Part shown: positions 116 through 56,008 of the stretch, in pieces
How the letters are laid out: each line of letters opens with the position of its first letter
Numbering within the stretch: position 1 is the stretch's first letter
Source: Acanthochlamys bracteata
Lineage: Eukaryota > Streptophyta > Magnoliopsida > Pandanales > Velloziaceae
Length of the DNA stretch: 64,000 bases
Direction: 5' to 3'
Assembly (NCBI GenBank): GCA_019914995.1
Contig: CM034140.1
Span: 7,300,026-7,364,025, forward strand
Made by a program: the position numbers and the translations under genes
Notes under the pieces: generated by a model
Told to the model about the DNA's origin: nothing
Database searches by the model: none
Seen by the model: only the letters and a program-made list of their open reading frames with translations

Positions 116-1954
116 CTCTTTTATTTGGTCATAGCTAGCCAGTTCAGCAGCATTTATAATTGCATTTCGTGCAACATTAGGACCCAGGCCAGTCCAAAGT
201 GCACCAAGTCCTTCCTATATTCAGGAAACCAAACTCAGGCATGGAAAATGCCGGTCAAACATTGTTATCTCAAAGTACGAACCTGTTTGAAAATTGTAGA
301 ATAAGCATTTAGTGCTCCAGAATAACGTCTTGGTACACCAGGAGGAAGCTTTCCTTCTGCTTGAAGTCGCACTTTCACCAGATCAGTTGGATTAGCAACT
401 GCAATTGCTAGAGCACCTATCAATGCAAGAAATCCAATTAGGGCAAGGAAATAGATTGGCCGACACAGATTTCTCATATCCAGTACTTAATTCCTACATG
501 CCTGTGGTCAGGCCAGCAAGAATTTTCTTAGTCAAAGGAATGTCTCCGACAAAATTGTCACCCACAAAATAAGATTTTACCTGCAACAGAACATTATAAG
601 AACATGGGGAAAAAAAGCAACAAAACAGGACTTTCGACTGAAGGAAACTGAAACTACCGGATCATACAAGCCAATTCTCAGGCCTCCATATATGCATTGA
701 CGATGTAGCCCAGGTATGATCCCCTTCCATAGTGCAGCAAGGCCTTCTTCTCTCCCGATAGTTGCAACTGTACCCAACAAGCCCCTGTATTTGGGACCAG
801 CAATGGATTCTAATCCAGTTTTCTTCTGTAGCTGAAGTCTAACTTTTGCTGTGTCCAAAGGTATAGTGCAAAGCTGCCAGGCATACAGAGCAAGTAAGAA
901 ACAAATAACTCACTCAAACGATCCCAAGCTCAAGAGGGCCTCCAAGCATCTCAATGGACAAAGGTGAAAACTCTCGGCTGCAATAGGGTGGCATCCACCG
1001 CGACGCCACATATATCTTCTAAAGAATTTTACGATGTATGATTACAGGATGTAAACTGAACAGAGAAAACTGTAACTCTGAACTACGAAAATACTATAAC
1101 ATGAAGACCGATTTTCTTCTTGTAAATTACAATTCAAACACATGTACGAACTACAAATCCAAGCTGATTTAGGTCTAGAACTGCAAACGAGTAATCTGCT
1201 TTGTTTCTATCCGAATCAAATATAAAGGATCAAAAGAAAAGATGCTTCAAATAACCCCAGAATCCAGCTAGAGAAATTTATCACAAGTTGGAGTAAGCAG
1301 ATATACCAACAATTACAACTTCTTCACTTGTCCCAACTTGTTAGTTCTCGGCGAGTGGTCACACTCACTCTACTGGTTTTAAAGCTCCGATCATTACCAC
1401 AATAGTTTTCATCTCATCACCACCACTTTTATAAAATCTACCAACACTTAATTCTTCATACTCTCTGCATCCTCTCACTCTCACTCCACTACTTTGTTTT
1501 TAATCCACTAATCAACAAACAACTCTTGTCAATGGAAATAAGTTGGCACCTTCATCGTCAACACATAGAAATCAAAATACAACAATCTCACTATTTACTA
1601 ATACACAATAAACCAACTATTTCCGAATGCATTAAACTTCAAAATATAACAGAAGCAGAAATCATCTAGCTCTCTCATCAATAGCAGATATAAATCACAA
1701 TCAACAATCTCACTATCAAGTATTCAACAACAGGTCAGCCCCAATCTAAAGAATCTCGATCAATGAAATCAGTACCAGGTATTTTTCAGATCAGTAGCAA
1801 CCACCACCAAATCAAAAGCCAAAACCAGACAAAATGTTAAACATTTCAACAACTCTCAGGTTGATTCAAATACCTCGGCGAAACAAGCGGCAATGGCGCT
1901 GCTGGTGAACAAACCAGCGAAGGAGATGTCCGACTTCGATCCTTGCCCCACCAT
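116..1954 (-). CDS. UCP1: Mitochondrial uncoupling protein (UCP/PUMP), 5' five exons, partial
   Basis: Inner-membrane mitochondrial carrier of the plant uncoupling-protein group, which exchanges anions and can dissipate the proton gradient. Exons on the minus strand: 1874-1954, 658-873, 502-580, 283-416 and 116-214. They join in frame to about 203 codons, so roughly the last 100 residues lie beyond the left edge. The protein starts [12 protein letters not shown]. It carries the first carrier signature [10 protein letters not shown] in exon 2 and the second, [15 protein letters not shown], in exon 4, followed by [13 protein letters not shown] and [20 protein letters not shown]. These are textbook UCP1/PUMP1 features. 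Intron 3 appears to use a GC donor (exon ends ACCACAG, then GCATGT). The gene is divergent to WLIM2 in the ancestral layout. Its first exon and promoter are duplicated at 9397-9477. UCP1 against a close paralogue cannot be settled from half a protein. Confidence 0.93.
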
Positions 1955-2927
1955 GAATCGAGATTCAAATCAAACGAAAAATTTCCTGAAGAAAATTTTC
2001 AGAGATTTGGAACTGTAGCAAAGTGGTTCCAGTAGTAGCACGACGACAGCAAGGTTGCGCTGGACTCAAAGAGCTAAGCTATATATACCTGAAAGCTTTG
2101 CGGGATCAGGCCATCCTTTTAAAAGGAGAATATTAGATGTCTTAACTTGCAAATGATAGGGCCTTCTTTATCGAATTTATTAATAGAGCATTAATTGTAA
2201 TTGCAATAACAGACTAGTAAGGGCCTTCATTTTGAAAGCTCTATTTAGTGAAAGTAATTTGAAAACAAAGTCAAAGTTGGATTTTTTTTGTGAATGATTT
2301 TAATAAAAGTCATGGCTTGAAATAAAGTAATCCTTACAAACAGTTTGAAATAACTAGATCAGCCCAATAAGGTCCTTGGTATTGTGAAATATATTAGTAT
2401 TGGAATCGTTTACCAAAATAGAATCATTTTTGGGTTCAGTGGTGGAGCAAGTGGTTGGACTCGGATCAGAATCGGGTCCGAGTCAGAAAGATTCACGCAA
2501 TTTAAGCCGCGTTTGAGAGTATGTTTTGAAAAAATGTTTTTCAACATTTTCAGTTCACTGACTCCTTAATCATTTTATTTGCAACTCTTTTGATGCTTTA
2601 TTCAGAGAATAATATATTCTTTTGGACTTTTTAGTTTTTCAGTTTTCTCGACGAGGAATTTATTCTATCAAATTGATGTTCCTCGGAATTAGGTGCTGTC
2701 CGGGAAAGCAATAGAGTGCTTTTTATTTTAAAAAATACCTCATTTTATTATTATTATTTTTTTTATAAAATTTTATAAAAAATAAAATTAAATATTATAT
2801 AATATTTATATAAATAAGTTTTTATTAAAAAAATCTATGAAATATTTTTTATTTGAAAAAAGTTTTATTCACAAATACTGTCAAATATCTCTAATATACT
2901 GTCTTTAGTTTTCAAGCATTTTTTATA

Positions 2928-3232
2928 ATGGCGTGTTTCAAACGCCCGTAATTTTATTTTTTTCGTTAAATTTTGAGTTTCGAATGGTTCATATATTTTA
3001 ATTATACAAAAAATTCAAAATTCTATTTTTACATGCGAATTCTAGTTCCAATTTTTTTATTTATTTTGTACATTTTTCAATACAACTATATCTTTTAATT
3101 TTTAATATACTTTTAAAATCTGTTAAAACACAAATACTGAACTCTATTTTTACTTTATTTTTAAAAAATTTTATTTTTTATTTTTTATTTTTTATTTTTA
3201 CGAAATTTAATTATGAATATTTGAAACACGTT
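2928..3232. mobile_element. MITE-like insertion in duplication copy A
   Basis: About 305 bases, AT-rich. It begins GGCGTGTTTCAAACG and ends TTTGAAACACGTTC, so the ends are imperfect inverted repeats, with TAAT on both sides as a probable target duplication. Copy B has the uninterrupted site near 10345-10356 (GATAATATTATC). A related element lies at about 24442-24739, sharing TTTTTAGTTTCGAAC-type, ATTTTTCAATACAA and ACGAAATTnAGTTACGAAT words. No coding capacity is visible. Confidence 0.72.
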
Positions 3233-3657
3233 CTAATATTATTATAGTTAAACACTGGGCCGGGCCACGTTCTATTTCTTAAGTATGCTGTAAATATGTC
3301 TGATGGTTTGAACGCAAGGCCCATTAATCGGCCATTTATAGACATGTTGTAGCAGTGGTTGAAAAGTAGGAAAACATCATGGTGTTGTTGTCAGAGGAAA
3401 AAGAAAAAGATAAAATATAAATAATGTTTTTAGACAACGTGCGCCGCATGTTTTTTTTTTTTTTCATTCTATCTGTTAGTTTATAATTATTTTTAATTAA
3501 ATAATAAAAAAATATCATTATTCAGATATTAGTGGACATAAATAATTTTAGGAACTGTTGCCAAATTTATAGTTGTCGAATTTTGAATAGATTGTTTAGC
3601 TGTTTTTGTGTTTGTTATAAAGTTGCAGATCTTATATGTGACATCAACAGTTTTAAG

Positions 3658-4288
3658 CTTAGTTCTAAAATCCGAATCGGTCCGAAGTATAAATCAATCC
3701 GAATTTATAATAAAATTATTTATACAATTGATTCATTCTGATCCGCTTCGATTTATTCTGATTCGTTTCGATTCAGTCGACCCGCTCGTTCGGATCGAAC
3801 CGGATTAAATTAAATTTTTAAAATTTTAAATTTATGATATATTAATACAAAATAATTATTAGTAGTCTTATATTAAAATATCATATATAGTTTATATTTT
3901 ATATTTGAAGATGATGATGTCAAAAAATAAATTTATTATATTTTATTTATAAATATTTATTATTAGTGATTTTTAAGTTTTTATATTATTAATTTTGTTA
4001 AATTATAAAAAAAATAACAAAATTATTTTAAAATAAAAAATTTCTTTTAAAATTTATTATTTAAAATAATTTTTTTGTTTATATATATATTTTTTATTAA
4101 TTTATTTTTTCTTTTATACTTTCTAATAAAAAACAAATTTTATTTTTTTTATAAATAATAAATATTTGTATTACCGTCAACGTTTTAATATTTTTAACAT
4201 AATAAATTGTTAAAACCTATTGATCCAATCCGATAGATCTTGGTTAATTCGGACAGTTTTTCGATTTAATTTCCAGTACAGGTACAGG
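3658..4288. mobile_element. Copy-A-specific AT-rich insertion upstream of the orphan WLIM2 exon
   Basis: Copy B reads straight from CATCAACAG into TAAGCAGCTCTCC. Copy A is interrupted there by about 630 bases of AT-rich DNA that begins with CCGAATCGGTCCGAAG and ends near CCAATCCGATAGATC and TTCGGACAG. TTTAAG occurs at both junctions and may be the target duplication. I see no ORF, no TG...CA long-terminal-repeat ends and no clear inverted ends, so the class is unknown. It lies immediately upstream of the 5' UTR of the orphan WLIM2 exon and may have changed its promoter. Confidence 0.6.
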
Positions 4289-4441
4289 TTTAAGAAGCTC
4301 TCCATTTTAGTGGCTGCTTTTCTTTTCTTCTTCTGCTTCTCATTCCAAGACAACAGCAACAGCAACAACAAAGAAAACGGTGATCTCTCTCTCTGAGCGA
4401 GAATCGATCGGGGCCGTTGGATTAGTGAGCGACGGCTAAGA

Positions 4442-4576
4442 ATGGCGACGTTCGGGGGAGCGCAGCGGTGCAAGGTTTGCGAGAAGGCGGTGTACATAAT
4501 GGACCAGCTCACCGCCGACGGTGTTGTTTATCACAACTCTTGCTTCAAATGCTCCCACTGCAAGGGTACACTCACG
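4442..4576 (+). pseudogene. Orphan first exon of WLIM2 (truncated duplicate)
   Basis: This exon encodes 45 residues beginning MATFGGAQRCKVCEKAVY and ending at KGTL, the first half of a LIM zinc finger. It is nearly identical to exon 1 of the complete gene at 10927-11061, with two amino-acid changes: L4 is F here, and the last residue is T instead of K. The ATG, the 5' UTR (CT-rich, then GATCGATCGGGGCCGTTGG) and the GT donor at 4577 are all retained. WLIM2 homology stops at 4725, so exons 2-5 are missing. It cannot make a LIM protein. It could still be transcribed toward and antisense to the receptor gene that follows. Confidence 0.9.
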
Positions 4577-4750
4577 GTAAACTGAAATCCTTTTCGATTT
4601 TATTTTTTAATCAATTAAACCAATCCGTCAGATGTTTTATATTTTGTTTCTCGGATTCATTCTGATTTGCTTGATGGGAATTTGATAAATGTTGTAGGTT
4701 TCTTTGCTCTAAAGTTTAAAGAGTATAGCTACTCCTGGCTGTATTTGCTT

Positions 4751-7700
4751 TCATATGAATCCTGAGATAAATGATATGTAAACAATTTCAATTTTCGGGA
4801 GATTCCATCCTTCTTCGAATATCACTGGATTACTACAAAAAGGTCCTCCATCGAGCTTGAACTCCTTGAGACTCATGCTCAAGGGTGGGCTAGTACCAAT
4901 GAGATGTACCATCTTCCTCATCTCGTCTTCACTATAATGAAGTTTACCATACAAAAAAATTGATCGTATGAAAGAACTACGAGTGGTGGTCGTTGATAAT
5001 TGGAGTATATCATCAAAGCTTTCCACGGATATTCCAAGATATTGCAAGTTGTTGCTCAAGCGCAGGACCTCTTTAATGTTTGCTTTCTTATAGATCTTGT
5101 TGCTCAAGTGCAGCAGCTCTTCAATGTTTGCATTCTTATAGATCAGCTCGTTCCTGGTGATGCTTTTTCTCCACCCCCTGAACTTACTGTTATACAGGTC
5201 AAGCACTAGTAGCTCGTATAGGCTCGACATCCATCCATATGGTATGTAATCAAGCCCTAATGTATTCCGAAGAAGCAAAAACTTGAGCTTTTTCAAATTC
5301 TTCATTGTGTCAGGCAACTCACAAATCCAAGTATTAGATTGATTCAAATAGAGAAGGTTTTCAAGATAACCAATCTCCTCAGTAACACACGCAATATTGG
5401 AATGTTGTAAATCCAAATATTGCAGATTTTGCGGAGAAACCAAGTGCGGAATAAACAGACTATAACTGTTGTAAAATATTGTAAGGCTTAACAACTCGGA
5501 GGAGTGTAGTGAGTACTTTTCTGCTTCTTCTTCTTCCTCCTCTTGGATTAGCAAGGATGCACGCTGAGCCCCTTGTAATTGGTGGGGGGAATCAGTTTTT
5601 CTCAAAATTTTCACCATCCATTTGTTTGGTTTGCGTCCTTGTTCTTGGGTAATCCATAATGCCATGTCACGAATAACATCATGCATCCAGACCTGAATAA
5701 ATAGTTAAACAGAATAGATTATTCCAAATAAATTAAAAAAAGAAAGGTGCAACCATTGATATATCATTAATTGATATACTTGTTTTATTATAAAATTTTA
5801 GGATATGATCTAACTAAATTAAGAAACTTAGACAATATGATATATATCGCCATGTAGGTAGTGGTACCTTGGTGCACATACAATCATTTTTAATTAGATG
5901 CTTTCAGATTTTGGGTATATTTTAAATTGCTTTGTCCCCATTTTATTTGTATTAACCCTATCGTCAACTGCCAGGTTCTATCATTCATAGTATGTGTTCT
6001 CGAGCATCTAAAATTACATAAAATTTGCACTTCTAATGAAAATTCTTAATTCCACTACATTAATTTCTACACTTACAAGGAAATATCATAATAACCATGA
6101 CATAAAATATTTTCTTGATACCCACTTATCACAGAAAAAGATGTTTAACTTAAACCATATTATTATTCTATAGCTATAAGTTATGTGGCCTTCTACATAT
6201 ATCAATGTGTTTACATAATTATATAGTTACTAATTTAGATGATTATTGATTACATTATCCCTTATGCAATCGCAAGAATAATCAAGTTACTTTTAGTTTA
6301 CTTCTCTGAAGCTTCAGTATATAGCCTGTCATTCATATGTAATAACAAAATTAATTAGTAATTAAAAACATAAATTGAAGACATATTATAATTAAGTTCA
6401 TTTAAATAATTTTAACTAATTACTAACCCTACAAGCAAAATGGTGAAATAAAGATGATATGAAAATTTTGACTGTTAAACGAATAATTTAAGTGATGTCC
6501 AATCTTTAAAATTAGTACGATATTGTAAATATTATGATAATATTTTTTCAGAAAGGTATTTAGTAAGACATATATTGGTAAAAAGTATTGCCATACCATA
6601 CCCTATGTCAACATTCGCTCTAAATTAATCCACAACTTACTAAATTCAATATTTTTACGTAATTGTTTTTCGAATTTTTACTACCAAATATTCTTATATA
6701 TGGATCTTTAAACCTTCACTTGACATATCATGATATAACAATTCAAACATACAATGGTATTGTGAATTTTCCAACATGTTAAACAGACTTTTTTAGCCTT
6801 TAATTGCAAGACTGATGATTACTACTTTGGTTGATTGGAAAGTCAGAGAAATATTATAAACATGCAGATTAAAGAAATAAGTTGATTACATAAGAAAAGA
6901 GTTATCCCATCAAAAAGAGATATATGAAATCGAGTGATAAAGAAAAACAAAATTGTATTAGGGATTAGTTTAATTACCTTTGTTTCATCATCAGGATTAT
7001 GCTCTAACAAGGCTGCCATTCTCAGTCTCCCAACGAGCAAAATACCATTTCCGTAAGCACGGTCATAATTATTTGTTGAGTTGCAATTGAGAAATCCTAA
7101 CCCAATCCAACTGCGCACCAACTCATGTACATCTATCTTCCAATCTTCTGGCCACAGTGCGCAAGACAAAAAGCACTGCTTATCTGTATCATCGTTCAAT
7201 GAGTCATAACTAAGCACAAGTGTGCGAAATATTTCGTCTTCTTCGTTAGGCACGTGAAGATGTTTTGATTCTTTGATAAATTTGAGTGCCTCCCGCCACT
7301 CATCAATGGTAGTCTTCGAGGCCATCGCACGCCCAATAGAATTCAGTGCGAGGGGCAGGCCCTTACATTCATCAGCAATAGCTTCTGCGGCGAGCCGAAT
7401 TCTTTTATCTGATATGATGAGATATTTGGGAATGTTGTCTTCAAATAGAAGCCATGCATCTTTATTATTCAAAGTATCAACCTTGATCTTCGTCTCGACT
7501 TTCATTTCAGCACATACTTTGTGAGTTCTCGTGGTTAGTATCACTTTTCTCTTAAATTGTTTACCTCCTTGTTTTGTAGGGATTCCAACCTCTTCTAGTT
7601 TCAGAGATTTCCATACATCATCTAGTAATAGAAGAAAGTTCTTCTTATTCAAGTAGTTGAAGATGAGTTTGGGCAGGTTCATCTTAACATTGTCACTCAG

Positions 7701-8414
7701 TTCTAGCTTCAACGCCTCTGCTATTTTTGTCGAGAGGTTCTCCGGTGTACAATCTTTTGAAACCACGACCCAAATGACACGATCAAAGCTGCAATAGCTG
7801 CTAAGTAAGCCGCCAGATTGTAGCTCATTATTAATTCTTTTGAGCAGTGTAGTTTTGCCAACTCCACCCATGCCTACAATTCCAAGTATACTTTCTTGAT
7901 CATCGGTCAAAAATTCGGTGGCCTTGTTGAGATAAGGGTCTAAGCCGAAAATGGAAGACTTGATTGGTTGCTCTTGAACAGCTACCGAAGGCGGCTTCAT
8001 CCCTTGGCTATTGACTTGACCAGCTCCTTCCTTGAGAAGGGTCTTCACTTGTGCGAGCAGGTTGGTCGAAGCTATGCTGACCCGCACATAATCGACGGAG
8101 AAAGTACTCTTGAGCTGGAGATGGCGGTTGATTAGCTGTATAGTTTCTTCAAGTGTTCTCTGGACCTTCTGGAGCCAATTGTCAACTCCCTTCGGCCAGA
8201 CATGCCCTTTGAGCTCAAGGATTTCAAGATTTAGAGTAATATCATCCTTGAGACCCTGCAAGCTCTCGCAGGCACTTTTGAGAGCACCGATTTTGGAGTT
8301 GAGACGGCCGAGATAAGGTATCAATGCTGCCGTTAGCATGGCGACCGCAGCGGTTTCCAAACCGAATGTCCAGTTAACAAACAGCAACATAAGCTGCTTC
8401 TTGATGGCTTGCAT
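4751..8414 (-). CDS. CC-NBS-LRR (CNL) disease-resistance-type receptor
   Basis: Intracellular immune receptor of the RPS2/RPS5-like CNL class. Two exons (6978-8414 and 4751-5692, intron 1285 bp) give about 792 residues. An N-terminal helical region (1-170) is followed by an intact NB-ARC domain: P-loop GIVGMGGVGKTTLL, kinase-2 KNFLLLLDDVW, RNBS-B KVILTTRTHKVC, GLPL motif ECKGLPLALNSIGRA, RNBS-D CFLSCALWPEDW, and VWMHDVIRDMALW (the MHD motif) at the start of exon 2. LRR-like repeats follow (LQYLDLQHSNI, LENLLYLNQSNT, LKKLKFLLLRNT). The protein stops after only about 300 residues beyond the MHD motif, shorter than typical for this class. The stop lies about 25 bases from the duplication junction at 4725, so the LRR end may be truncated. 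It sits in same-strand orientation downstream of the orphan UCP promoter. Key nucleotide-binding motifs are undamaged, so it may be functional. Confidence 0.92.
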
Positions 8415-8898
8415 GGTGGTTAGGAGGGAAGAGGAGGGTGTGAAGGTGTAAGAACCGGGGGAGTTGATGGATCAGGTGTTGGCAAACCTGATTTCTGAAG
8501 TTTTTGGTGTGACGGAGGCTTCGGATGAACAGAGGGAGGACTTGGTAGGTGAAGGGACGGAGGTTTCGGTGGGTGAGGATGGAGGATAATGGCCGTCTGG
8601 TGATTTTCTTCCGCCGGCAGAGAGGGATGAATTGCAGAGGTATAATGACCTTGCTCTCGGATGTATCCCTCCCTTTATACAGTAGAAGTAGAAGTTGGGG
8701 TGATAAAAGCCTGCGCCAGATTTTCAATACCTTATTAATTACATATAGCTATTCTTTCTGTAATAATCTGTTTTAGGCTTTTTCTAATAATCTGAAGATT
8801 TAAAAATACCAACAACTGTATGCAATAATACACTAGCTAATTAATTACATATAGCTAGCTCTTCTGTTATTTGTTTGCATACATGTGATATGTTGGGT
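8415..8898 (-). promoter_or_regulatory. 5' leader and upstream region of the CNL gene
   Basis: This is about 480 bases between the CNL start codon and copy B of the duplication. The part next to the gene is GA-rich on the plus strand (CT-rich on the sense strand) and looks like a 5' UTR. Further up, TAATTACATATAGCT occurs twice (about 8738 and 8841). It ends at GTTTAAAG (8899-8906), the start of copy B. No independent conserved promoter element was recognised. Confidence 0.45.
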
Positions 8899-9396
8899 GT
8901 TTAAAGCTCCGATCATTACCACAATAGTGTTCATTTCATCACCACCACTTTTCTAGAATCTACAAACACCAAAATTATTCATACTCTCTGCATCCTCTCA
9001 CTCTCACTCCACTACTTTGATTTTAATCCACGAATCAACAAACAACTCTTGTCAATGGAAATAAGTTGGCACCTTCATCGTCAACACATAGAAATCAAAA
9101 TACAACAATCTCACTATTTACTAATACACAATAAACCAACTATTTCCGAATGCATTAAACTTCAACATATAATAGAAGCAGAAATCATCTAGCTCTCTCA
9201 TCAATAACAGATATAAATCACAATCAACAATCTCACTATCAAGTATTCAACAACAGGTCAGCCCCAATCTAAAGAATCTCGATCAATGAAATCAGTACCA
9301 GGTATTTTTCAGATCAGTAGCAACCACCACCAGATCAAAAACCAAAACCAGACAAAATGTTAAACATTTCAACAACTCTCAGGTTGATTCAAATAC

Positions 9397-9477
9397 CTCG
9401 GCGAAACAAGCGGCAATGATGCTGCTGGTGAACAAACCAGAGAAGGAGATGTCCGACTTCGATCCTTGCCCCACCAT
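9397..9477 (-). pseudogene. Orphan first exon of UCP (truncated duplicate)
   Basis: This exon encodes [19 protein letters not shown] and then IIAACFAE, differing from the working exon at 1874-1954 by A to S and A to I changes. ATG, 5' UTR and the GT donor (GAG then GTATTT) are preserved. No other UCP exon follows; about 500 bases further along the minus strand the duplication ends and the CNL upstream region begins. A transcript starting at this promoter would therefore enter the CNL gene in sense orientation. Confidence 0.9.
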
Positions 9478-9712
9478 GAATCGAGATTCAAATCAAACGA
9501 AAAATTTCCTGAAGAAAATTTTCAGAGATTTGGAACTGTAGCAAAGTTGTTGCAGTAGTAGCACGACGACAGCAAGGTTGAGCTGGACTCAAAGAGCTAT
9601 ATATTCCTGAAAACTTTACGGGATCAGGCCATCCGTTTAAAAGGAGAATATTGGATGTCTTAACTTGCAAATGATAGGGCCTTCTTTATCGAATTTATTA
9701 ATAGAGCATTAA

Positions 9713-9923
9713 AGGCGTGTTTATCTTGATAAACAAATGAATCAAATAAATTTTTTAGAATTTAATTTAAAAAATTAAATTAAAAATTAAAAAGATTTAA
9801 TAAAAAATAAAATTATATATTAATATAATATTTATAATAAAAAAATTTTATTTTAATTTTTTATATATTTTATATTGAAAGTGAGTTTAAAAAAAGTAAT
9901 TTGGAGTGTTGATAAACACGCCC
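9713..9923. mobile_element. MITE with TAA target duplication inserted in copy B
   Basis: About 211 bases with inverted ends AGGCGTGTTTATC and GATAAACACGCCC, flanked by TAA on both sides (9710-9712 and 9924-9926). The unoccupied site is present in copy A at about 2192 (GCATTAATTG). A 3-base TAA duplication and short AT-rich non-coding body are typical of Tourist-like (PIF/Harbinger) MITEs. Relatives with the same end and internal words lie at about 24826-25062 and 51112-51357, and possibly 13725-13835. Confidence 0.85.
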
Positions 9924-10926
9924 TAATTGTAATTGCAATAACAGACTAGTAAGGGCCTTCATTTTGAAAGTTAGTATTTAGTGAAAGTAAGTTGAAAACA
10001 AAGTCAAAGTTTGCATTATGAGATTGAAAGAATAATATATATATTTTTTGACTTTTTAGTTTTTCAGTTTTCTCGATGAGGAATTTATTCTATCAAATTG
10101 ATGTTCCTCCGAATAAGGTGCTGTCCGGGAAAGCAATAGAGTGCTTTTTATTTTAAAATAATATCTCATTTTTAAAAATATATAAAATATAAAAAATAAA
10201 TATTTTATATAGATAATTTCTTATTTTTAATTTAAAAAATACAATTATTTTTAAAATCTTTTTAATACTTTTTATTTAAAAAAATTTTATTCACAAATAC
10301 TGTCAACCATCTCTAATATACTGTCTTTAGCTTTCAAACATCTTTGATAATATTATCATAGTTAAAATGGGCCGGACCACACTCTCTTTCTTAACTATGT
10401 TGAATCTAATGGTCTGATTGCAAGGCCCGTTAAACGGCCCATTTATAGACATGTATTAGTGTAGCAGTGGTTGAAAAGTAGGAAAACATCATGGTGTTGT
10501 TGTCAGAGGAAAAGGAAAAAGATAATAATAATAAATAATGTTTTTAGACAACGTGTGCCGCAGATGTTCTTTTTTTTTTTTTCTTCTAGCTGTTAGTTTA
10601 TAGTTATTTTAAATTAAATAATAAATAATATTATATCATATTCAGATATTAATGAACATAAATAATTTTAGGAACTGTTGCCAAATGTATAGCTGTCGAA
10701 TTTTGAATGGATTGTTTAACTGTTTTGTGTTTGTTATAAGATTGCAGATCCTATCTGTGACCATCAACAGTAAGCAGCTCTCCATTTTATTGGCTGCTTT
10801 TCTTTTCTTCTTCTGCTTCTCATTCCAAGACAACAGCAACAACAACAACGAAACCGGTGATCTCTCTCTCTATCTCTGTGCGTGAGAATCGATCGGGGCC
10901 GTTGGATTAGTGAGCGACGACTAAGA

Positions 10927-13456
10927 ATGGCGACTTTGGGGGGAGCGCAGCGGTGCAAGGTTTGCGAGAAGGCGGTGTACATAATGGACCAGCTCACCGC
11001 CGACGGTGTTGTTTATCACAACTCTTGCTTCAAATGCTCCCACTGCAAGGGTACACTCAAGGTAAACTGAAATCCTTTTCGATTTTATTTTTTAATCAAT
11101 TAAACCAATCCGTCGGATGTTTTATATTTTGTTTCTCGGATTCATTCTGATTTGCTTGATGGGAATTTGATAAATGTTGTAGGTTTCTTTGCTCTAAAGT
11201 TTAAAGAGTACGCGAAATGCAAATCAAATTTTGATATAGTTGAAAACACACCATCAAGTCCTTGAGTAGTTGTTTCTTGGAGATTTTTTTTTTATGAGAA
11301 TTTGAGAAATGTGTAGATCATTTGTGTTGGTCAGTGTTCAAAAGGAGATGTTTTGTTAAGCAGTTTAGTTTTGGATAATGTGCTGAACCTTGTTTCTTGT
11401 TTTGGTAATGTTTAACATTGTTGAAGAACTTATGTGCAAATTTCTTATGAAGATTTTATATATAAGGCTAGAAGTTTCAGGGACGCTCATTAAAATTTTT
11501 TGAAATAAGATTGTTTTTCCCAACTTTATCTGGAAAGAGTTGTAAACTTTCCATTTATTTTATTTACCTTCAAGATGACATTGTCGGAGCTGGTTAATGG
11601 TTGCTTTCGGGCGCAATCTTTGGAAATTTTCCTGGTGTCTCTTTCAAGTGTTTTTAAAGTCAATGGATCATTTTTCTTCCATAACATTCAGATCGCCTTC
11701 TGAGGTTTCCTGACAATGTTTATTTTTTTATGCCACGTTCGTCCTTATTTTTGCAACATTTTTATTCTGAATGCACAGTGTTGATGTGAATTATCTAGTA
11801 GGAAATTATCATAAGGATACTAAACTCCCTACAGGAGTCTGGTTTGGATATGCAATAGAGGGTAGCTGAGACTGATTTGTTTTTCTATGAGGCTGTTCAG
11901 TAGGTTGGAGGCAACGTTCCACGGAAAGATAAAAGAGCATCTGTCAAACTTCTGCATGAACCAAAGTGTTTTGATTAGGATATTTGAGCATGTCTCAAAC
12001 TTTGAGATGTCTTCAACACTTTGTTTATGCAGCATAGGTCATTGTTTCTGCAAGGTGTGCTTTATTGTGAATATAACATAGCTGACTAGCTGTAGACTAT
12101 GACCAGTTCAATTAGTCTACAAGGACAATAAATAGCATCAAGCAAGTTTTGATTCATAACAAAAATTACCCTTTGCTTATGATGCGAAAAGCTATAAGAG
12201 GGACATTACCTGTGATCTGCACTTTGCCAGAACACATTCTGTAGCTTCTGAAAGTGCTAGTACCGATTTCAGTTTATATTTTGCCTGTACAAGTTCTCCT
12301 GAATATGCGTACGCATTTTACAGACTACAGGTGTGCTTATGTTTGCTGAACTCCACAGTTCAACCTGCGGTTACAACTAACCGCCAAATCATGTAAAGTT
12401 GTTTCTAATAGCTCTATCTTTCATATCATCAGCTAGGTAACTATTCATCAATGGAAGGTGTCCTTTACTGCAAACCCCATTTTGACCAGCTGTTTAAAGA
12501 GACTGGAAGCTTCAACAAGAATTTCCAGTCACGTGAGCTCCTCTTTAGTGTTATACTTAATTCTTTTTGTTATATATTGAAAATTCCATTGCATGGTGCT
12601 TGTTTCCTTATACTGCTTTTACTTTTTGGCAGCTGCAAAGTCTGAGAAATCAACTGCTGAACTGGTAAGCTCAACATACAAATCCCTTAAATATTTTTCC
12701 CTTCCTTTGAGCATGTTTATGCGTGACATCCTTCAAAGCTGATTTACTTGCATTCTTTGCAGACAAGGTCTCCAAGTAAGGCTGCGAGGAGGTTTTCTGG
12801 TACTCAAGACAAGTGTGCCACCTGTAACAAAACAGTATATCCCCTTGAAAAGGTTGTGTTTTACATTACAAATTGTGTTGGGTTTTAACTCCTCAGTGTA
12901 TGCAAAATTTTCTCACCTAATTTGTCTATACACGTCACAATTAGATTATCCTAATTGGATGATGAAGAGGAGCAACAGTTACAGTGAAGTAGACTACCTC
13001 AGGTGGTAGCCTGGTAGGGCCATAAGGCGCAGTATAATTTTCATTAAAGGCTGATTAAGACTTCTAATCTAACTTTTAAAAGCAAATTGATTGACGTGTA
13101 TCTTAGCTTCATGAGCATGGCCACACTTTGTCAGATCTTTTTGTCTATGAAATAATAAGCTTGATCCTCTTACTTGAAATGTTCATATGACGTTGAAGTT
13201 GCAAGCTTTCTGATTTGTTTTGTTTGGTATCTTGCAGGTGAGTGTTGAAGGGCAATCGTACCACAAGTCGTGCTTTAAATGTTCACATGGAGGCTGTTCT
13301 ATCTCTCCGTCAAACTACGCAGCCCTTGAAGGAATTCTTTACTGCAAGCATCACTTCTCACAGCTATTCAAGGAGAAGGGAAGCTACAACCATCTCATCA
13401 AAAGTGCTTCCGTGAAGCGGTCTGCTGCTGCACCAGTTTCTGTCCCAGAATCGTGA
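10927..13456 (+). CDS. WLIM2: Two-LIM-domain actin-bundling protein, WLIM2 type
   Basis: Plant cysteine-rich-protein relative that binds and bundles actin filaments, and can also enter the nucleus. Exons: 10927-11061, 12433-12532, 12633-12664, 12763-12852 and 13238-13456, giving 191 residues. LIM domain 1 (about 8-60) starts CKVCEKAVY, with YHNSCFKCSHC and LYCKPHFDQLFKETG. The linker RSPSKAARRFSGTQDKC leads into LIM domain 2 (about 105-160) with YHKSCFKCSHGGC and LYCKHHFSQLFKEKGSYNH. The tail is KSASVKRSAAAPVSVPES. The GSFNKNFQSP and YNHLIKSAS(I/V)KR stretches fit WLIM2 rather than WLIM1. It is head to head with UCP in the ancestral arrangement and shares its short promoter. All zinc ligands are visible. 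The truncated duplicate of its first exon is at 4442. Confidence 0.95.
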
Positions 13457-24441: not shown

Positions 24442-24739
24442 GATATGCGTTTAAATGCCTATATAATTACTTTCTTTCGTCAAATTTTTAGTTTCGAACA
24501 CTTCATATGTTTCAATTATATAAAGAACTTAGAACTTTACTTTTATATTCGAAATTCCGTTTCTCACTTTTTTATTTACATATTTTTCAATACAATTATA
24601 TTTTTTAATTTTCAACACACTTCTAAATATTATTGAAACATCAATACTGAACTTTACTTTCACTTTATTTTTTAGAAAACTTTAGTTCTTACTTTTTATT
24701 TTCACGAAATTCAGTTACGAATTTTTAAAACACGCTTTT
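24442..24739. mobile_element. MITE-like element, relative of the one at 2928-3232
   Basis: It shares with 2928-3232 the order of AGTTTCGAAC, TTTCAATTATA, CATATTTTTCAATACAATTA, ACTGAACTTTACTTTCAC, CACGAAATTCAGTTACGAAT and a right end AAAACACGC. It is diverged and its target duplication is not clear. No ORF. Confidence 0.6.
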
Positions 24740-24825
24740 ATTTTTTGTATAAAAATGGGTCAGATTCTCTTTTGAGAATCCGATCTGTAATTGTTGATCC
24801 GGTCTATATAGGGTATTTTTATCAA

Positions 24826-25062
24826 TATTTCAAACTCACTTTTTTTTAAACTCATTTTCAAAATAAATATATATAAAAATTAAAATAAAACTTTTTATTA
24901 CTAATTTTTTTTAAAAAATTTATTTTTAAAACTTACTATAAATAATAAATTAATATATAATTTTATTTTTTATTAAATATTTTTAATTTTTAATTTTATT
25001 TTTTAAATTAATTTTTAAAAAATTCACTTCACCCATTTTACCTATAAAGTAAACACGCCCAT
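24826..25062. mobile_element. MITE of the GATAAACACGCCC family
   Basis: It contains TTTCAAACTCACTTTTTTT, then AATTAAAATAAAA, then AATTAATATATAATTTTATT and TTTAATTTTTAATTTTATTT, and ends AAGTAAACACGCCC. The same words in the same order occur at 51112-51357. In reverse they occur at 9713-9923, where the insertion is proven by an empty site. Confidence 0.65.
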
Positions 25063-25465
25063 AGTGACCTTGTAACGAATTGAAAAAACATATATCTGTC
25101 CTTTTCCTGTCTTTAAAAAATATCTCAATCTAAAGATAAGATATTCCTATCTCTTACCTACTCCTCATGTTTTCAATACAGACCCTCATAAGTTTCCTTT
25201 AACGTTTCGAATATAAAATTTCACTATTTCGTACCATCTTTAGCCAAATATATAATTGTAAAGACTACTTTATGCCACAAGTTATTATTCAGGCATGACA
25301 TTGAAAACATGAATTATTTAAACCTTTCCTTCTTTCTTTCTTTCTCCGAGCATTCTACTTTCAATCTTTCAACAAATAGGAAACAGATAAACTTCACAAG
25401 ATCGAAAAAAAAAACAACCGAGAGAAGGATTGCAAAATTTGGAGAAAATTTTGAAAGAAAGAAAT

Positions 25466-31200: not shown

Positions 31201-34200
31201 TCCACAATGAAAGATTCGTGGGAAGTAAGCTTACAGAAATGTAGCTAAGTTGAATAATGGATCACCAAACTGTTCATGGAAAGGGAATTATTTCAGCAGT
31301 TATCTTTTATAAGCTAAGCGTATCTTATACTTCTTACTTCTATAACCCAAGACCCATCAGCATCCCGTGAATGGATCTATGCAATATGTGCATCCAACGT
31401 TCCTGCTCATAACTCCAATACCCTTGTTGTCATTTAAATGGTATTACAAGTCATGCTAAATGTTACTGAAGCATGCTAAACCTAGAAGCATTGAGATTAA
31501 GCAATTACAATATATTATAAACTATCACATTCATAGGTTGACTATTGGTCTACGTTACTTGCAAGTGGTACACCAGGGGTTAGCACAAATTACAGTAAAA
31601 CTCTCTAAATAGCAATGGGTAAGTAGTAACGCTGCCTACTACCAGAGCTTTGGGAACAGGGCTTGGTAGTATGACTTAAATGCATGTAGCATCAACTGCA
31701 TTCTGTAGTACATTCAGTATCCAGCAAGCCAACTTTCAACAAGTTAAAGAATTTAAAGCTATAATAATCTGGTCTTAAAGAAAGTCTTACTCTATTGATT
31801 TGGTAGACTGATGTAGCTTAAGCATAAGAAGTTTCTCCTTCTCTGGCAAGTTCTTCTGTGCGTGAAATTCAGCAAAGCTTCTCTTTAGCATGTCCTCCAC
31901 CTATGAGGAAAGTCATGCAAGTACATAATCAACTTTAGTTATATATTATCCCTAGCTAAACTTGCATAAAATCTGGTAATACATTTAGACAGTGCTCCAT
32001 AAGCACAAAGGTACAGAACAACAGATTTAACGAGTATAAAATATCAAAACGTCCACTCTTAACATCAAGCCATTTATAAATTTACAATATGTCCCCAAAT
32101 CCATCATATTTTTTAGTGTTGATCCAGGAAAAACACCTACAAGTCTACCATGCCCCTCTATCGTTCAAAAGTAGACAAAAACAATAATACTACCTTCAAT
32201 TCTTCTACACGAAGAAGATGCAGAATCATCATGTACGTCAATCTAAACTGAGATTCAAGTCTAGTTGCTTTGCCAACGATTAATTGCTTTAGATCACTCT
32301 CCTCCGGAATGTCATCACGACACATCACCACTACTGTACCAATTTTATCCAAGCCTCTTCTTCCTGCTCGACCAGCCATCTGAATATACTCCCCAGGAAG
32401 CAATCTTCTGAAGTCCTTGCCATCAAATTTCCTCAAAGAATCAAAGACAACCTGATAATCAAATAGAAAGAACATGTTTTCTTAAATTTCTCATACAAAC
32501 CCATAATATATACAAGTATACTAGAAAAAAGAAACTGCCACTTAAATTGAGCTTCCAATCAAATAATGGAAGACATAATACTTTTAATTACTAATGCTAC
32601 ATGGGAGCACCAACAGCAAGTGAAGGTTGTTAGAATAGTGACTCAAGAAACCGGAAGGAATTGACGTGTGCAGTGAATATGGTAAGAAAAAATATTCTAA
32701 ACCCACCCAATGCTAAAACCTAGATGCTCACATGTGCATTTGCTGTAATTGTTGATAAGCGCATAAAGTGTCTGAAAATTTATTGAACCTAATTGTTAAA
32801 AACTGCTGCATGGTTACCATTTGCGCACGACTAAGAAATCACATAAAAGCTCGGACCAATGGATTCAATAACAAAGGCTAAACAAAATCTATATAAGGAA
32901 AACAAATAATAAACACCAGCTCCAGCCTAAAAGCCAAACCATGTTTCCCAGGATTATTAGTATTTGTTGTATTTTGTTATAGCATCTAACGGTATGTCTT
33001 TTCCAAGGAGTAGAAGTGCTTAGAACTTACTGTCCTAGCTGGAGCATTGACACCCATGGCAAAGGTCTCAGTGGAAAATAGAACCTGCAATATAAAGTTT
33101 AAGAGAGAGTTAACTCAATCATGAAGGCAGTACCAAAAACAGATATAAGAATCAGGGACCTTAAACCAGAATGGTTTTTTAGGTGATGGGCAGAAAAAAG
33201 ATCACACGAGACTACCATCAAGGTTGTCAAGATTGGAATTTTATGTAGGATTGTTTCGCTTTCCTAGGATCGTAAAATCGAAATTTTAAGTGAGATTGTA
33301 CGATCTTACTTATCAGTAATTTTTTTATAAAATTGTTTAATGCTTTAAAATTTTTTGCAGTACTTATTAAAATTGTTGAAAATTCAATCATAATTTTTCT
33401 TATATTTTATTTTATGTAATAAATTAACAATGTTCATATTTGTAGTTCATATGAACTATATCATTAACAATTTCTTATATTTCATTTAGTTCATTATCAC
33501 AATCTTTTTACCGAGATTATCATTATTTCATAAATGCACACTTATATAGTTATACTAATATCTAGAAAACACACTCTCTTATGTAATTAATCAATTAGGT
33601 GACAAATAATCGTCTTTATCACCTCAAGATAAGGAGTAAAGAAAACAATCCAAAACACCAACCGCACAGAATAATTTTTTGCTCCCATAATAAATCCCGC
33701 ATAGAACAAACCAAACACCACCGCATCCGCTATAAATGAATGACAAATATTCTGTAGCTATTCCAGCTTCGCTCAAAATCCTTGAGAGCTCTCCTGATTC
33801 ATGAAAATTCTTATAAGCTGAAATTGTAAGATCGCAAGTAAGATCAAAATTTTAAAAATTTTAGGATTAAGATCGGAATCTTAAAGATCCAAAGTAAGAT
33901 TGGGATCTTGTATAAAGTAGGATCGTTTTGTTGATGTAAAATCATAAAATTTTAAAATTTAAATCGAGATTTTAACAACCATAACTACAATGAAGAATGA
34001 AACCAAAAGGTTGAAAGTCTGAAGCTAGGAAATGACAATGCAAGTATACATGGATTTTCAGCTTTGCTCAAAGTCCTCGAGAGCTCTACTGATTCATGAA
34101 GATTTTTTATAAGCTGAAATCGTAACATCGCAAATAAGATCGAGATCTTAAGAATTTTAACATTAAGATTGGGATCTTAACTATCGAAAATAAGATTGGA

Positions 34201-37200
34201 ATCTTGTGTCAAGTAGGATTGTTTTGTTGATGTAAAATTGTAAAATTGTAGAATTTTAAAATTTAAATCGGGATTTTAACAACCATAACTACCATAAAAA
34301 ATGAAACCAAAAGGTTGAAAGTCTGGAGCTAGGAAATGACAATGCAAGTATACATGGGGAATTAGAAGCAATTCCAGCATTAGAGATCCTCATGCTTATC
34401 CTTTACCCCCTTCTAAAGAGATGGATAGCAATTCAAGCTTAGAACCATCATACTGCAGCTTTTGAAAAACTACTCAACCAGATAAAGCAGCATAAAAGAA
34501 ATAACACCAAGAAAACGAAATATACGAAAAAAAAGTTATGAGTAAGTTACACTGTGCCCACCAAAACTTAGGGCTAGTAACACTTCATTCACCCACAAAG
34601 TTATGAGGATTCTACTAGGACAAACTTATATAACAAATTGCTTTCTGTCTTGATAAAATGTATGGAAACAGAATGGTATTAATTGCCTATTGGAACTAAT
34701 GTGGTATTTGAAATTGGTCAGTATCAACTGTATAGTCAATATCACGATCCACTTGTCTACTTTTCGTTATAGTTACACTCCCCAAACAAAATTAAGCAAG
34801 TTACTCTAGAGTCTGATTACTGATGATTACATACCAAACAAACAAGTAAGCTTACCTTAATCACACCACGACAGAAGAGCATCTCAACGACTTCCTTTAC
34901 AATTGGAAGAAGCCCAGCATGGTGCACACCAATCCCTCTTCTTAATAGGCTTTGGACTCTGACAACCTGCCAGATGCCTCTTTATTAGTATAGCTGCAAT
35001 TGCAATTTACCGATTAAGATGTGCTTTAACAAAATGCTGCTGGATACCTGTGGAAGATTCTTATCAGATCCTTTGAGGCGTGAAAAAGCTTTATCACAGA
35101 AAAGACGGATCTCCTTTTTCTCAGAACTGCTAGTAAGATCACTTCCAGATAAACTATCCGCTGACCTGTCACACCTAGTTTTGGAGAAGCAGAAGATAAC
35201 TACCTGAAATCAACAAATGTCAATTGTACAAGCATTTATTGAAAATAATCCTTACCAGGTGAAGTGAACCTACTATGTTCAAAAGAGACAGTTTATTGGA
35301 GCACACAAATCATCATAGAATAGAACTACCAATCACCAAAATAACTCAGAAATATGCATATGCATACACATTGGAAAGATGAACCTATCTCTAATGAGTA
35401 CAGCCTTAACTGCCTAGCCAGTCACAAGAAGCATTTAGAGTTGCATTCTAGCATAACAGAATTTCATAAGAATGGACCTTGGGAAGCCATCTAAAGAGAT
35501 TGTTCACTAACAAAGAGCAAGCTAAACAACCAACAAAAGTTCTGCAGATGGAAGCTCGATAAACTATTCAAGTTTGAAGGATAAAGTACTATGGTGAGAG
35601 AATGATTTGAATGTAGTACATACAGGTAAAAGTGACATCTTTGACAATTTGTTTATCAGCATCAACCATAACGAAGATTCTGCTCTCCTTGCTCCCCATT
35701 GGTTTTGATCTGCCCCACTACTTCCAGTAAAGTTTCCTGTATTTTGAGGTCCGGAATGCTTCTGCCCTCTCCCTCTACTAGAGGTTTCATGCTGCCTACT
35801 TTGAGCTGCTGTCAGCTTCATTCCATGATTACCTGCAGGAACTCTAGAATTTTTTTTCTTATGAACTTCTTTAGCAGCTCTTAGGCCCTGATGCAGAAAG
35901 TTCTCATTCTCGCAAATTTTATACAGCTCCCCCGAGTAAAATAAGCAGTGCTCTAGAGGAACAGGTCTCTTTGTTGTCCTAAAAGTACAAGAATATACAA
36001 TCAAATACGCAGGAACTAACGAAACACGTATTTGACTGATTTTGTTAGTATCTGTTGGGTTGCATATGCTTCCAATATTTAAGCTGCACTTGTGGTTTTG
36101 GGTACTACTGCATTGAGCTACATTCCTTACCCAGTAACATGAATTTTCTTTTTCTTTGTCCGACTGATCCAATCTGCAAACTCAAATGTGTTTGGAACCT
36201 ACAAAAGACTCATGAGACTTAAAGCAACCCCAAGGGTATATATTAGAAATACAAACTGGTTGAAAAGTGAACAAATAATGGCATAAGAAAGTCTAGTCCT
36301 TATTTAAGTTAGCCAAACCATCATGCATTAAACACATCTGAGCTATAACTGACATTTACTTAGAAGAATTTCAAACTTGAACAGTGAGGGAATTTCTGAA
36401 ATGATGCATTTGCAAAGATTCCCTACTCTGAAGCACTAGTTGCTCATCTTTATTTTCAAGATAAATGGAGGGAATGAAGAATGCATTTTGCAACTTCAAC
36501 GAATAACAGACTTGCTTAGCTACCAATCATAACATTACCAGTCTAAGAAGATGGCATATGTACCGTTGCTGAAAGTAGGACTATATTGATATGTTTTGGT
36601 AGCATGATTATGACTTCTTCCCAGACAACACCTCTTTCGACATCATTGACATAATGAACCTCATCAAATATTACCTGTTAAATAGAGAAAGATAATCTTC
36701 TTAATAACATACGAACATTTGATATTTACTACCTTGACTGCAAGATACCTATTATAAACTAAACTATCTGCATAGACCCAATTACCCATTCTATGTCGCG
36801 AATAATGTCAGCACCTTTATAAAGCATGGACCTCAATATCTCCGTCGTCATGATAAGACAAGAGGCCTCTGGCCTCAGACTGACGTCACCAGTAAGAAGG
36901 CCTACATCAAACTTCCCACAAAAATCCCTATACTTTTGGTTGCTGATGGTTTTTATTGGAGCAGTATAGACAGCCCTCGTGCAATGCTGCCAAACAGATT
37001 GATCTTTAATTAAAACAATCTATAAGGTATATCAGAAAACCAAAATTTTACGATGTACAAAAACCTATGAATGCAGGAATGATGTTCTAAATGTCACCAT
37101 AGGTTATGACTTCCAAGTACAATCAAATGACCTTTTGGATAATGCACAAGTGATAGCATGGACATTTAGCTATGCAATGTGTTTTGTCTATTGTGTGTCA

Positions 37201-39986: not shown

Positions 39987-40508
39987 TTTCCGGCAGTCGC
40001 CGGAGTTCTACCAATTCTACGAACAACAACCACGACGAGAACGAAGAAATCGAAGGGGGGTTTTTGTGTTAACTGGGTAATACAAGGGCCTAGTAAATCC
40101 CAAATGGCCTGTGTAATACAACGGCCCATCATATTTTATTTTTTATAAATATTTAAAATTTATTTAAAATTTTTTTTTAAAATAAAATATTTTTATTTAA
40201 AAAAGTTATTTAAATAAATTTTTTAGTATTTATAATTTATAGTTGTGTACGTTTGATATCTATTTTATTTTATAAATATTTGAGTAATGATTGCTTTTAT
40301 ACATATATAATAATAAGGATATCAGGCCTTACGAAATGAATGGGCCTTGTAACGGGCCTCTTCGATTAACATGGCTTGCCATCATCGGGTGTAACCTCGC
40401 CAATTTTACATGGATTGCGATCTGGTGTGTTGTTACGACTCGCGAGCGGGTTTAAGAAAGAAAAGAGAGAGAAAATACATTTGATTCCTCCGGCGATCGC
40501 AAAAGAAA
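39987..40508. promoter_or_regulatory. Divergent promoter of SKI2 and DEX1
   Basis: The two start codons are 522 bases apart. The interval has TGGGCC/GGCCCA site-II-like elements on both strands (about 40122-40128 and 40341-40346) and further GGGCC(T) words near 40085 and 40354. An AT-rich core lies at 40130-40320. Site II elements are common in promoters of constitutively expressed plant genes. Confidence 0.6.
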
Positions 40509-51111: not shown

Positions 51112-51357
51112 CGTATTTACAAACCCTTCAAACTCATTTTTTTATTTAAATTTATGTTTATATAAAATATTTATAAAAATTAAAATAAAATTCTTTTATT
51201 AATAAATTCTTTTAAAAATTTAATTTAAAAATTTATTATAAATATTAAATTAATATATAATTTTATTGTATTAAATATTTTTAATTTTTAATTTAATTTT
51301 TTAAATTGATCTTTAAAAAATTTACTTACCACTCTAAGTTCAAGATAAACACGCCCA
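51112..51357. mobile_element. MITE of the GATAAACACGCCC family
   Basis: About 246 bases from AGGCGTATTTACAAACCC to CAAGATAAACACGCCC. Reverse-complemented it lines up with 9713-9923, sharing AATTTTTTA, TTTAAAAAATTAAATTAAAA, TTAATA and ATAAAATTATATATTAAT. It lies between the TASH3 remnant and the bL19m promoter. Confidence 0.75.
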
Positions 51358-51599
51358 AAGAGTGTAAAATTCTAAAACCCGCAAGTGAACAACCCGAAAC
51401 CCGAATTTACAACCGGGTTAAAACATTTGTAAATTTGTACAGTGAAAGCGTTAACGGAAACCCGAATTCGCAAGAAAACCAATTAACTATTTCAGTAATA
51501 GACCACATCATATTAGTTTCGCAGATATATATCTACATTTCGTCATTACGTAATCTATAGAATACAAGTTTCCTCTTTTTCTAACTGCTGCAATACACA

Positions 51600-55645: not shown

Positions 55646-56008
55646 ACTTGAAGCTTGTGGTTGTAAGTTTCCTGCTGTATTCTGGCTTTTAGACCTATTC
55701 TATGGTTGTACTTGCATTCAAACTGCAAAACCTGTGTATATTGTATATACATATGACAAGCTCCCATTGTTCGAGTTGGATGTTGACTATTGTGTTCTAC
55801 ACTCAATACTCACTTTCTGTGAGGCCAAGAAGTTTTACAGCATGCAAATTTAGCGTACAGTTACAAGTCTACACACTATGATCTCACAAGCACACACTGG
55901 TTTTTTATAGCAACAGTCTCTCTGCTCTTTGAGAAAGCTCAAAATCTTTACAGCAAGCAAATTCAGCAGCTGTACATCCTCAAGTCTTCAGACTACAATC
56001 TCACAAGC

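What the first reader, a model, noticed from the sequence alone, without database searches (positions are those of the whole stretch)
1378..11210. NLR gene sits exactly at the junction of a tandem duplication of a divergent promoter
The segment from UCP intron 1 through the shared promoter to WLIM2 intron 1 is present twice in direct orientation. A 4.2-kb block with a CC-NBS-LRR gene fills precisely the gap between copy A (ends 4725) and copy B (starts 8899). One flanking gene is whole on each side (UCP left, WLIM2 right), and each copy leaves the other gene as a lone exon 1. This is a clean example of an immune-receptor gene being seeded into housekeeping gene space together with, or by way of, a duplication.
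Basis: partly seen in the sequence, partly recalled or inferred. Interest (0 to 1): 0.75.

Follow-up and report, generated by a model that had tools for sequence, protein, structure and literature searches.

The report
Truncated immune-receptor fragment splits duplicated plant promoter
In a plant chromosome, most likely through a DNA-repair accident, the stretch between two housekeeping genes was doubled and a piece of a disease-resistance gene, whose relatives already lived nearby, came to lie between the copies without its tail; the arrangement looks real but mostly of a known kind.

Summary
The segment from UCP intron 1 to WLIM2 intron 1 is present twice in direct orientation (1378-4725, 8900-11210), with a 4.17-kb NLR block between. 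The block is cut from a CNL family whose members already lie 42-191 kb to the left; on contig C10, a putative homeolog, relatives lie about 6 kb upstream of WLIM2. The NLR is not whole: in the 200 kb read, all seven matches spanning the left edge lose similarity at 4725/4726, and three open paralogs run on for 146-166 more LRR codons. The right junction has a 5-bp overlap (TTTAA), the left 1 bp. This fits illegitimate repair with ectopic filler DNA. The duplication appears derived on C15: C10 shows one WLIM2 exon 1, C14 one UCP exon 1 in the 3.2 kb read and no NLR match. No present NLR looks like a fresh donor (best long match 86%; dS about 0.31, against 4.5% between the copies). The truncated NLR keeps an open 792-codon frame with GT-AG splice sites; activity is possible but unshown. 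An assembly artefact cannot be excluded without reads.

The parts
1378..4725 (+). Copy A: UCP intron-1 piece, UCP exon 1, shared promoter, WLIM2 exon 1, WLIM2 intron-1 piece
1874..1954 (-). UCP exon 1, next to the rest of UCP on the left
4442..4576 (+). Orphan WLIM2 exon 1 in copy A; last codon AAG->ACG (K45T) is derived against the C10 copy
4725..4725 (.). Left junction, WLIM2 intron 1 to NLR LRR exon; 1-bp overlap; 7 of 7 matches spanning this edge in C15:7100001-7300000 begin here (6) or one base in (1)
4726..8899 (-). NLR block X (ectopic filler), 4.17 kb
4751..5692 (-). NLR exon 2 (313 codons plus TGA at 4751-4753); 146-166 further codons present in paralogs a, e and b are missing
5693..6977 (-). 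NLR intron, GT-AG, phase 0
6978..8414 (-). NLR exon 1 (479 codons), N-terminal region plus NB-ARC
8900..8904 (.). Right junction overlap TTTAA, shared by NLR-family upstream DNA and UCP intron 1
8900..11210 (+). Copy B of the duplicated segment
9397..9477 (-). Orphan UCP exon 1 in copy B; differs from copy A by A13S and A20I, of which A20I is derived judging by the C14 UCP exon 1
10927..13456 (+). Complete WLIM2 gene, five exons
2946..3233 (.). Insertion only in copy A, related to 24471-24734
3652..4290 (.). Insertion only in copy A; repeat with dozens of listed genomic copies at 80-88%
9714..9923 (.). Insertion only in copy B, related to 24809-25064 and 51127-51360

Best explanation
A derived, local rearrangement on C15. 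Repair of a break or stalled fork between UCP and WLIM2 duplicated a segment of a few kilobases and put a 4.17-kb piece of the resident CNL family at the junction as filler. Shown: the duplication, the sharp truncation of the NLR, junction overlaps of 1 and 5 bp, and relatives already in the neighbourhood. Inferred: that C10 and C14 are homeologs showing the unduplicated state, that it was one event (microhomology-mediated template switching or patch-mediated end joining), and that the donor was a cluster member now lost. Likely effect, inferred: the once shared divergent promoter is split, copy A serving UCP and copy B serving WLIM2; the orphan first exons are free to decay, and the truncated NLR keeps about 480 bp of its own upstream region.
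For: All 7 matches that span the left edge, in the 200 kb read, lose similarity at 4725 (6) or 4726 (1), inside an LRR exon that continues in paralogs. Of 7 upstream-region matches, 3 reach the right junction; two of these read GTGTTTAA and then depart from X where UCP intron sequence begins. A total overlap of 5 bp or more has chance about 0.008 in a simple independence model. Among the repeats shown, none of 14 bp or more sits at both ends of the block. C10 shows one WLIM2 exon 1, C14 one UCP exon 1 in the 3.2 kb read. C10 keeps WLIM2+PCNA and C14 UCP+ceramidase, so the order UCP-WLIM2-PCNA-ceramidase is probably old. Gene-bearing filler DNA at repaired breaks in plants is described in PMC3445842 (passages); tandem duplications and ectopic-donor insertions of 10-1000 bp in rice are summarised in PMC7407515 (section 21).
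Against: The left overlap is only 1 bp. An 8-bp GTTTAAAG occurs near both edges (4714-4721 and 8899-8906; read) and could be taken for a target-site duplication, although the left one lies 4 bp off the junction and each is accounted for by native sequence. No donor is present: the best long relative is 86% identical over 1.6 kb with dS about 0.31 in exon 1, far more than the 4.5% between copies. Divergence between copies is uneven (2.9% at the ends, 7.0% in the middle, Fisher P 2e-5), so the age is uncertain. Decay of orphans only is not shown: the functional WLIM2 exon 1 (copy B) differs too, with F4L against copy A and C10. The rice precedent as summarised covers much shorter insertions.
Confidence: 0.6

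Rival explanations
1. Two steps. First a deletion or fusion in one haplotype joined a cluster NLR to UCP intron 1; later illegitimate recombination with a normal haplotype, between WLIM2 intron 1 and the NLR LRR exon, restored UCP and produced A-X-B.
For: Explains why no donor remains and why the junction overlaps differ. NLRs at C15 7113-7127 kb have the orientation needed.
Against: Needs two rare events. The nearer cluster members (7206-7263 kb) lie in the opposite orientation.
Confidence: 0.22
2. Assembly artefact: two haplotypes of one locus laid end to end, or a chimeric join.
For: Copies differ by about 4.5% and by mobile-element insertions, as alleles can. No reads were available.
Against: No N in the window or in the 200 kb to its left. 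The joins lie at 1-5 bp overlaps, with the NLR cut inside an exon; assembly joins usually rest on long overlaps (general knowledge, not from a call). An A-only or B-only haplotype would still need the NLR joined to WLIM2 or UCP.
Confidence: 0.12
3. A transposable element or Pack-MULE-like carrier brought the NLR, the duplication being a separate event.
For: Elements have entered both copies. An 8-bp GTTTAAAG lies near both edges, and a weak 14-nt inverted pair (86%) lies about 50 bp inside each end, 4774-4787 and 8839-8852.
Against: No repeat of 14 bp or more at the ends themselves among those shown (20 of 21 direct families, 25 of 31 inverted pairs). The 8-bp word is native to WLIM2 intron 1 on the left, and its GTTTAA part to NLR paralogs on the right. 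The block ends where both copies begin.
Confidence: 0.05

Closest known systems
Filler-DNA gene movement at repaired double-strand breaks (Wicker et al. 2010, not held; described and cited in PMC3445842, passages)
   Same: Gene-bearing ectopic DNA used to fill a break and ending at a non-collinear site, in part as imperfect genes.
   Different: Here the source family is local, and the filler sits between two copies of a duplication of a few kilobases, so both flanking genes stay complete.
Patch-mediated tandem duplications in rice (Vaughn and Bennetzen 2014, not held; summarised in PMC7407515 section 21)
   Same: Tandem duplications and ectopic-donor insertions attributed to asymmetrical nicks and end joining.
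   Different: The summary speaks of insertions of 10-1000 bp; here 3.3 kb (copy A today, later insertions included) plus 4.2 kb.
NLR copy-number change in wheat by unequal crossing over or double-strand-break repair (PMC6097286, passages)
   Same: NLR content altered by recombination or repair with readable junctions.
   Different: There large deletions (285 kb by unequal crossing over, 494 kb by break repair); here an addition between two housekeeping genes.

Membership tests
CC-NB-ARC-LRR (CNL) receptor | NB-ARC domain | tested here: met
   PF00931, 4.5e-56
CC-NB-ARC-LRR (CNL) receptor | Complete LRR domain | tested here: not met
   146-166 C-terminal codons of paralogs a, e and b absent; LRR_14 39.5 bits against a cut-off of 40
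CC-NB-ARC-LRR (CNL) receptor | N-terminal coiled coil of CNL type | tested here: inconclusive
   No Pfam CC-domain match up to E 0.1; the region aligns with paralogs, and solved plant NLRs match from residue 90 on at best (9h2l)
Filler-DNA gene movement | Ectopic DNA joined with little or no homology and without transposon ends | tested here: met
   1- and 5-bp overlaps; no repeat of 14 bp or more at both ends among those shown; an 8-bp word near both edges is noted under the rivals
Filler-DNA gene movement | Identifiable donor elsewhere | tested here: inconclusive
   Family identified, direct donor not found
Tandem segmental duplication | Two direct copies, single copy in the unaltered state | tested here: met
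   Copies. Single state: one WLIM2 exon 1 on C10, one UCP exon 1 in 3.2 kb of C14. Other species not testable here

The most novel reading that the evidence does not exclude
The rearrangement made a working truncated CNL: it kept its own upstream region, now also lies downstream of a second UCP promoter reading the same way, and was retained by selection, while splitting the shared promoter freed UCP and WLIM2 to be regulated separately.
Probability: 0.12. Interest if true: 0.6.

Novelty: new member of a known kind. Interest (0 to 1): 0.35.

Why it matters
It is a readable case of an NLR fragment appearing outside its cluster, with both junctions, the source family and putative undivided homeologous loci in one genome. 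It also offers a natural promoter-splitting experiment: two sister promoter copies, each next to one complete gene. If the truncated NLR is expressed, it would show repair accidents making compact receptors.

Tried and rejected
(1) Hybrid-junction idea: GTTTAAAG near both edges seemed to mean tandem duplication first, insertion later. Set aside, because two paralogs carry GTGTTTAA natively at that point; not strictly excluded.

(2) UCP exon 1::NLR fusion protein. Seven AG acceptors with tracts of at least 60% pyrimidine were listed in the block upstream of the NLR start. Three are in the NLR frame and each meets a stop before the NLR ATG; four are out of frame. Acceptors with weaker tracts were not listed. 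Read-through transcription stays possible.

(3) Antisense WLIM2 exon-1 RNA in the NLR transcript: an AATAAA word at 4599 on the minus strand precedes the orphan exon, so it need not form.

(4) Surviving donor: one search lists 73 matching stretches, X itself included, often several per gene; the best long one besides X is 86%. The tool calls such counts lower bounds.

(5) Selection on the truncated NLR. In 4000 simulations per setting, no stop and no frameshift survived in 0.0000 (all A/B differences), 0.0055 (end segments) and 0.22 (lowest rate) of runs. Suggestive only, since it depends on the age chosen. Pairwise dN/dS of X exon 1 with seven relatives is 0.31-0.46; among the relatives it is 0.34-0.57. 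Paralog d_25k (frameshifted, 4 stops) was dropped; C10 copy L008 (one stop) was kept.

(6) Gene conversion between the copies: the longest run without a substitution (133) is not unusual under shuffling (P 0.15), so conversion is not shown although the ends are less diverged than the middle.

(7) Telomere search: the listing was cut before C15, so a subtelomeric position is not shown.

(8) Paper searches: I saw no report of this arrangement among the titles and abstract starts listed. Passages only: PMC8355091 (reference list), PMC6097286, PMC7407515 (28, plus section 21 in 33), PMC3445842.
Full report
OBSERVATION. The window is C15:7300026-7364025 of a 195.5-Mb plant assembly. Self-comparison confirms a direct duplication, 1378-4725 and 8900-11210, with a 4.17-kb block between. 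In a genome search with copy A, the listed matches outside this locus fall in inserted repeats or an AT-rich stretch; 40 of 3456 first-look candidates were scored. Copy A joins the UCP gene on the left and holds an orphan WLIM2 exon 1; copy B holds an orphan UCP exon 1 and leads into the complete WLIM2. The further UCP exons were read by eye from open frames.

THE NLR BLOCK IS A FRAGMENT. On the minus strand the block encodes a 479-codon exon with NB-ARC and a 313-codon exon with LRRs, joined by a GT-AG intron. In the 200 kb to the left (C15:7100001-7300000) relatives lie at 7113-7127, 7206-7215, 7241-7248 and 7260-7263 kb. Seven matches span the left edge of the block; six begin at window 4725 and one at 4726. 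Past that point the LRR exon continues: 166, 152 and 146 codons in paralogs a, e and b, 120 in d (whose exon 1 is frameshifted), while c has an early stop. In the window the frame ends at TGA 4751-4753; the frame beyond it meets another stop soon after entering antisense WLIM2 intron. So the gene lost its C-terminal LRR part at the junction. The C10 relatives were not tested for this edge.

JUNCTIONS. At the right edge, three of seven upstream-region matches reach 8904-8905. Two read GTGTTTAA and then continue differently from X, where UCP intron sequence begins. UCP intron 1 reads TTTTAAAG, so TTTAA is shared: an overlap of 5 bp, chance about 0.008 in a simple model. The left overlap is one base. 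No repeat of 14 bp or more lies at both ends among those shown; a weak 14-nt inverted pair lies about 50 bp inside each end, and GTTTAAAG occurs at 4714-4721 and 8899-8906. I read this as illegitimate repair rather than transposition.

ANCESTRAL STATE. WLIM2 and PCNA have neighbouring copies on C10 (8090.7-8095.3 kb). UCP and the gene after PCNA, a neutral ceramidase by Pfam, have neighbouring copies on C14 (7533.7-7543.0 kb). C10 shows no UCP or ceramidase match and C14 no WLIM2 or PCNA match in these searches. The UCP search saw exon 2 but not exon 1 on C14, so an isolated UCP exon 1 on C10 or C14 could have been missed. I infer an old order UCP-WLIM2-PCNA-ceramidase that decayed in complementary ways after genome duplication. 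C10 shows one WLIM2 exon 1, the 3.2 kb read of C14 one UCP exon 1, and C14 no NLR match. The duplication therefore looks derived on C15. On C10, NLR relatives begin at 8101.6 kb, 6.3 kb upstream of WLIM2; 8095701-8101079 was not read. A CC-region relic lies at C15 7365.5 kb. The family was thus already in the neighbourhood, and 'seeding' is a displacement of 42 kb or more from the nearest member now present.

AGE AND DONOR. Copies differ at 91 of 2025 aligned sites (4.5%; 75 of 1909 without the AT-rich block 2736-2869), unevenly: 36 of 1244 at the ends and 55 of 781 in the middle. Gene conversion or uneven mutation may explain this; a longest-run test did not support conversion (P 0.15). The nearest NLR relative is 86% identical over 1.6 kb, with dS 0.31 in exon 1. 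No gene present looks like a recent donor: the donor was lost, or the block was moved rather than copied, or it remains from a two-step fusion.

STATE OF THE PARTS. Orphan exons carry derived missense changes: K45T in WLIM2 copy A against C10, A20I in UCP copy B against C14. The functional WLIM2 exon in copy B is not free of change either (F4L against copy A and C10). In 4291-4700, of 11 differences 5 are derived in A, 4 in B and 2 unclear. The NLR frame remains open over 792 codons. Neutral simulations make that unlikely at two of three assumed rates and unremarkable (0.22) at the lowest. Pairwise dN/dS of X exon 1 (0.31-0.46) is like that of its relatives (0.34-0.57). Expression is untested.

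VERDICT. A derived, local rearrangement with readable junctions, best explained by error-prone repair with ectopic filler, a kind described for plants (PMC3445842 passages; PMC7407515 section 21). An assembly error is not excluded. The open point of real interest is whether the truncated receptor and the split promoter have function.

Noticed in passing
C13:7620726-7622360 (in L036): A second UCP fragment without exon 1, 96-96.7% identical to the C15 gene, also ends inside intron 1 (at the equivalent of window 1042) and is flanked on that side by repetitive DNA: a second recent break in the same intron.
   Followed up: partly
L033:1453-1983 (C15 about 7365.5 kb): A relic of the N-terminal region of the same NLR family just right of the window, 52% protein identity.
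   Followed up: partly
window 1378-4725 vs 8900-11210: Divergence between the copies is 2.9% at the ends and 7.0% in the middle (Fisher P 2e-5); cause open.
   Followed up: partly
window 2946-3233 and 9714-9923: Short elements inserted in only one copy each, with TAA on both sides by my reading of the empty site in the other copy; related copies at 24.5-25.1 and 51.1-51.4 kb.
   Followed up: partly
window 43215-43996 and 40143-40235: Imperfect inverted repeats (about 69-82% identity) within 43.2-44.0 kb, and a short palindromic stretch at 40.1-40.2 kb.
   Followed up: no
window 33761-34357, 40754-41326, 55834-56045: Direct tandem repeats: 86% at 33.8-34.4 kb, 74-78% at 40.8-41.3 kb, 79% at 55.8-56.0 kb.
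   Followed up: no
C10 8.09 Mb and C14 7.53-7.54 Mb: Complementary retention of the UCP-WLIM2-PCNA-ceramidase block in two putative homeologous regions.
   Followed up: partly
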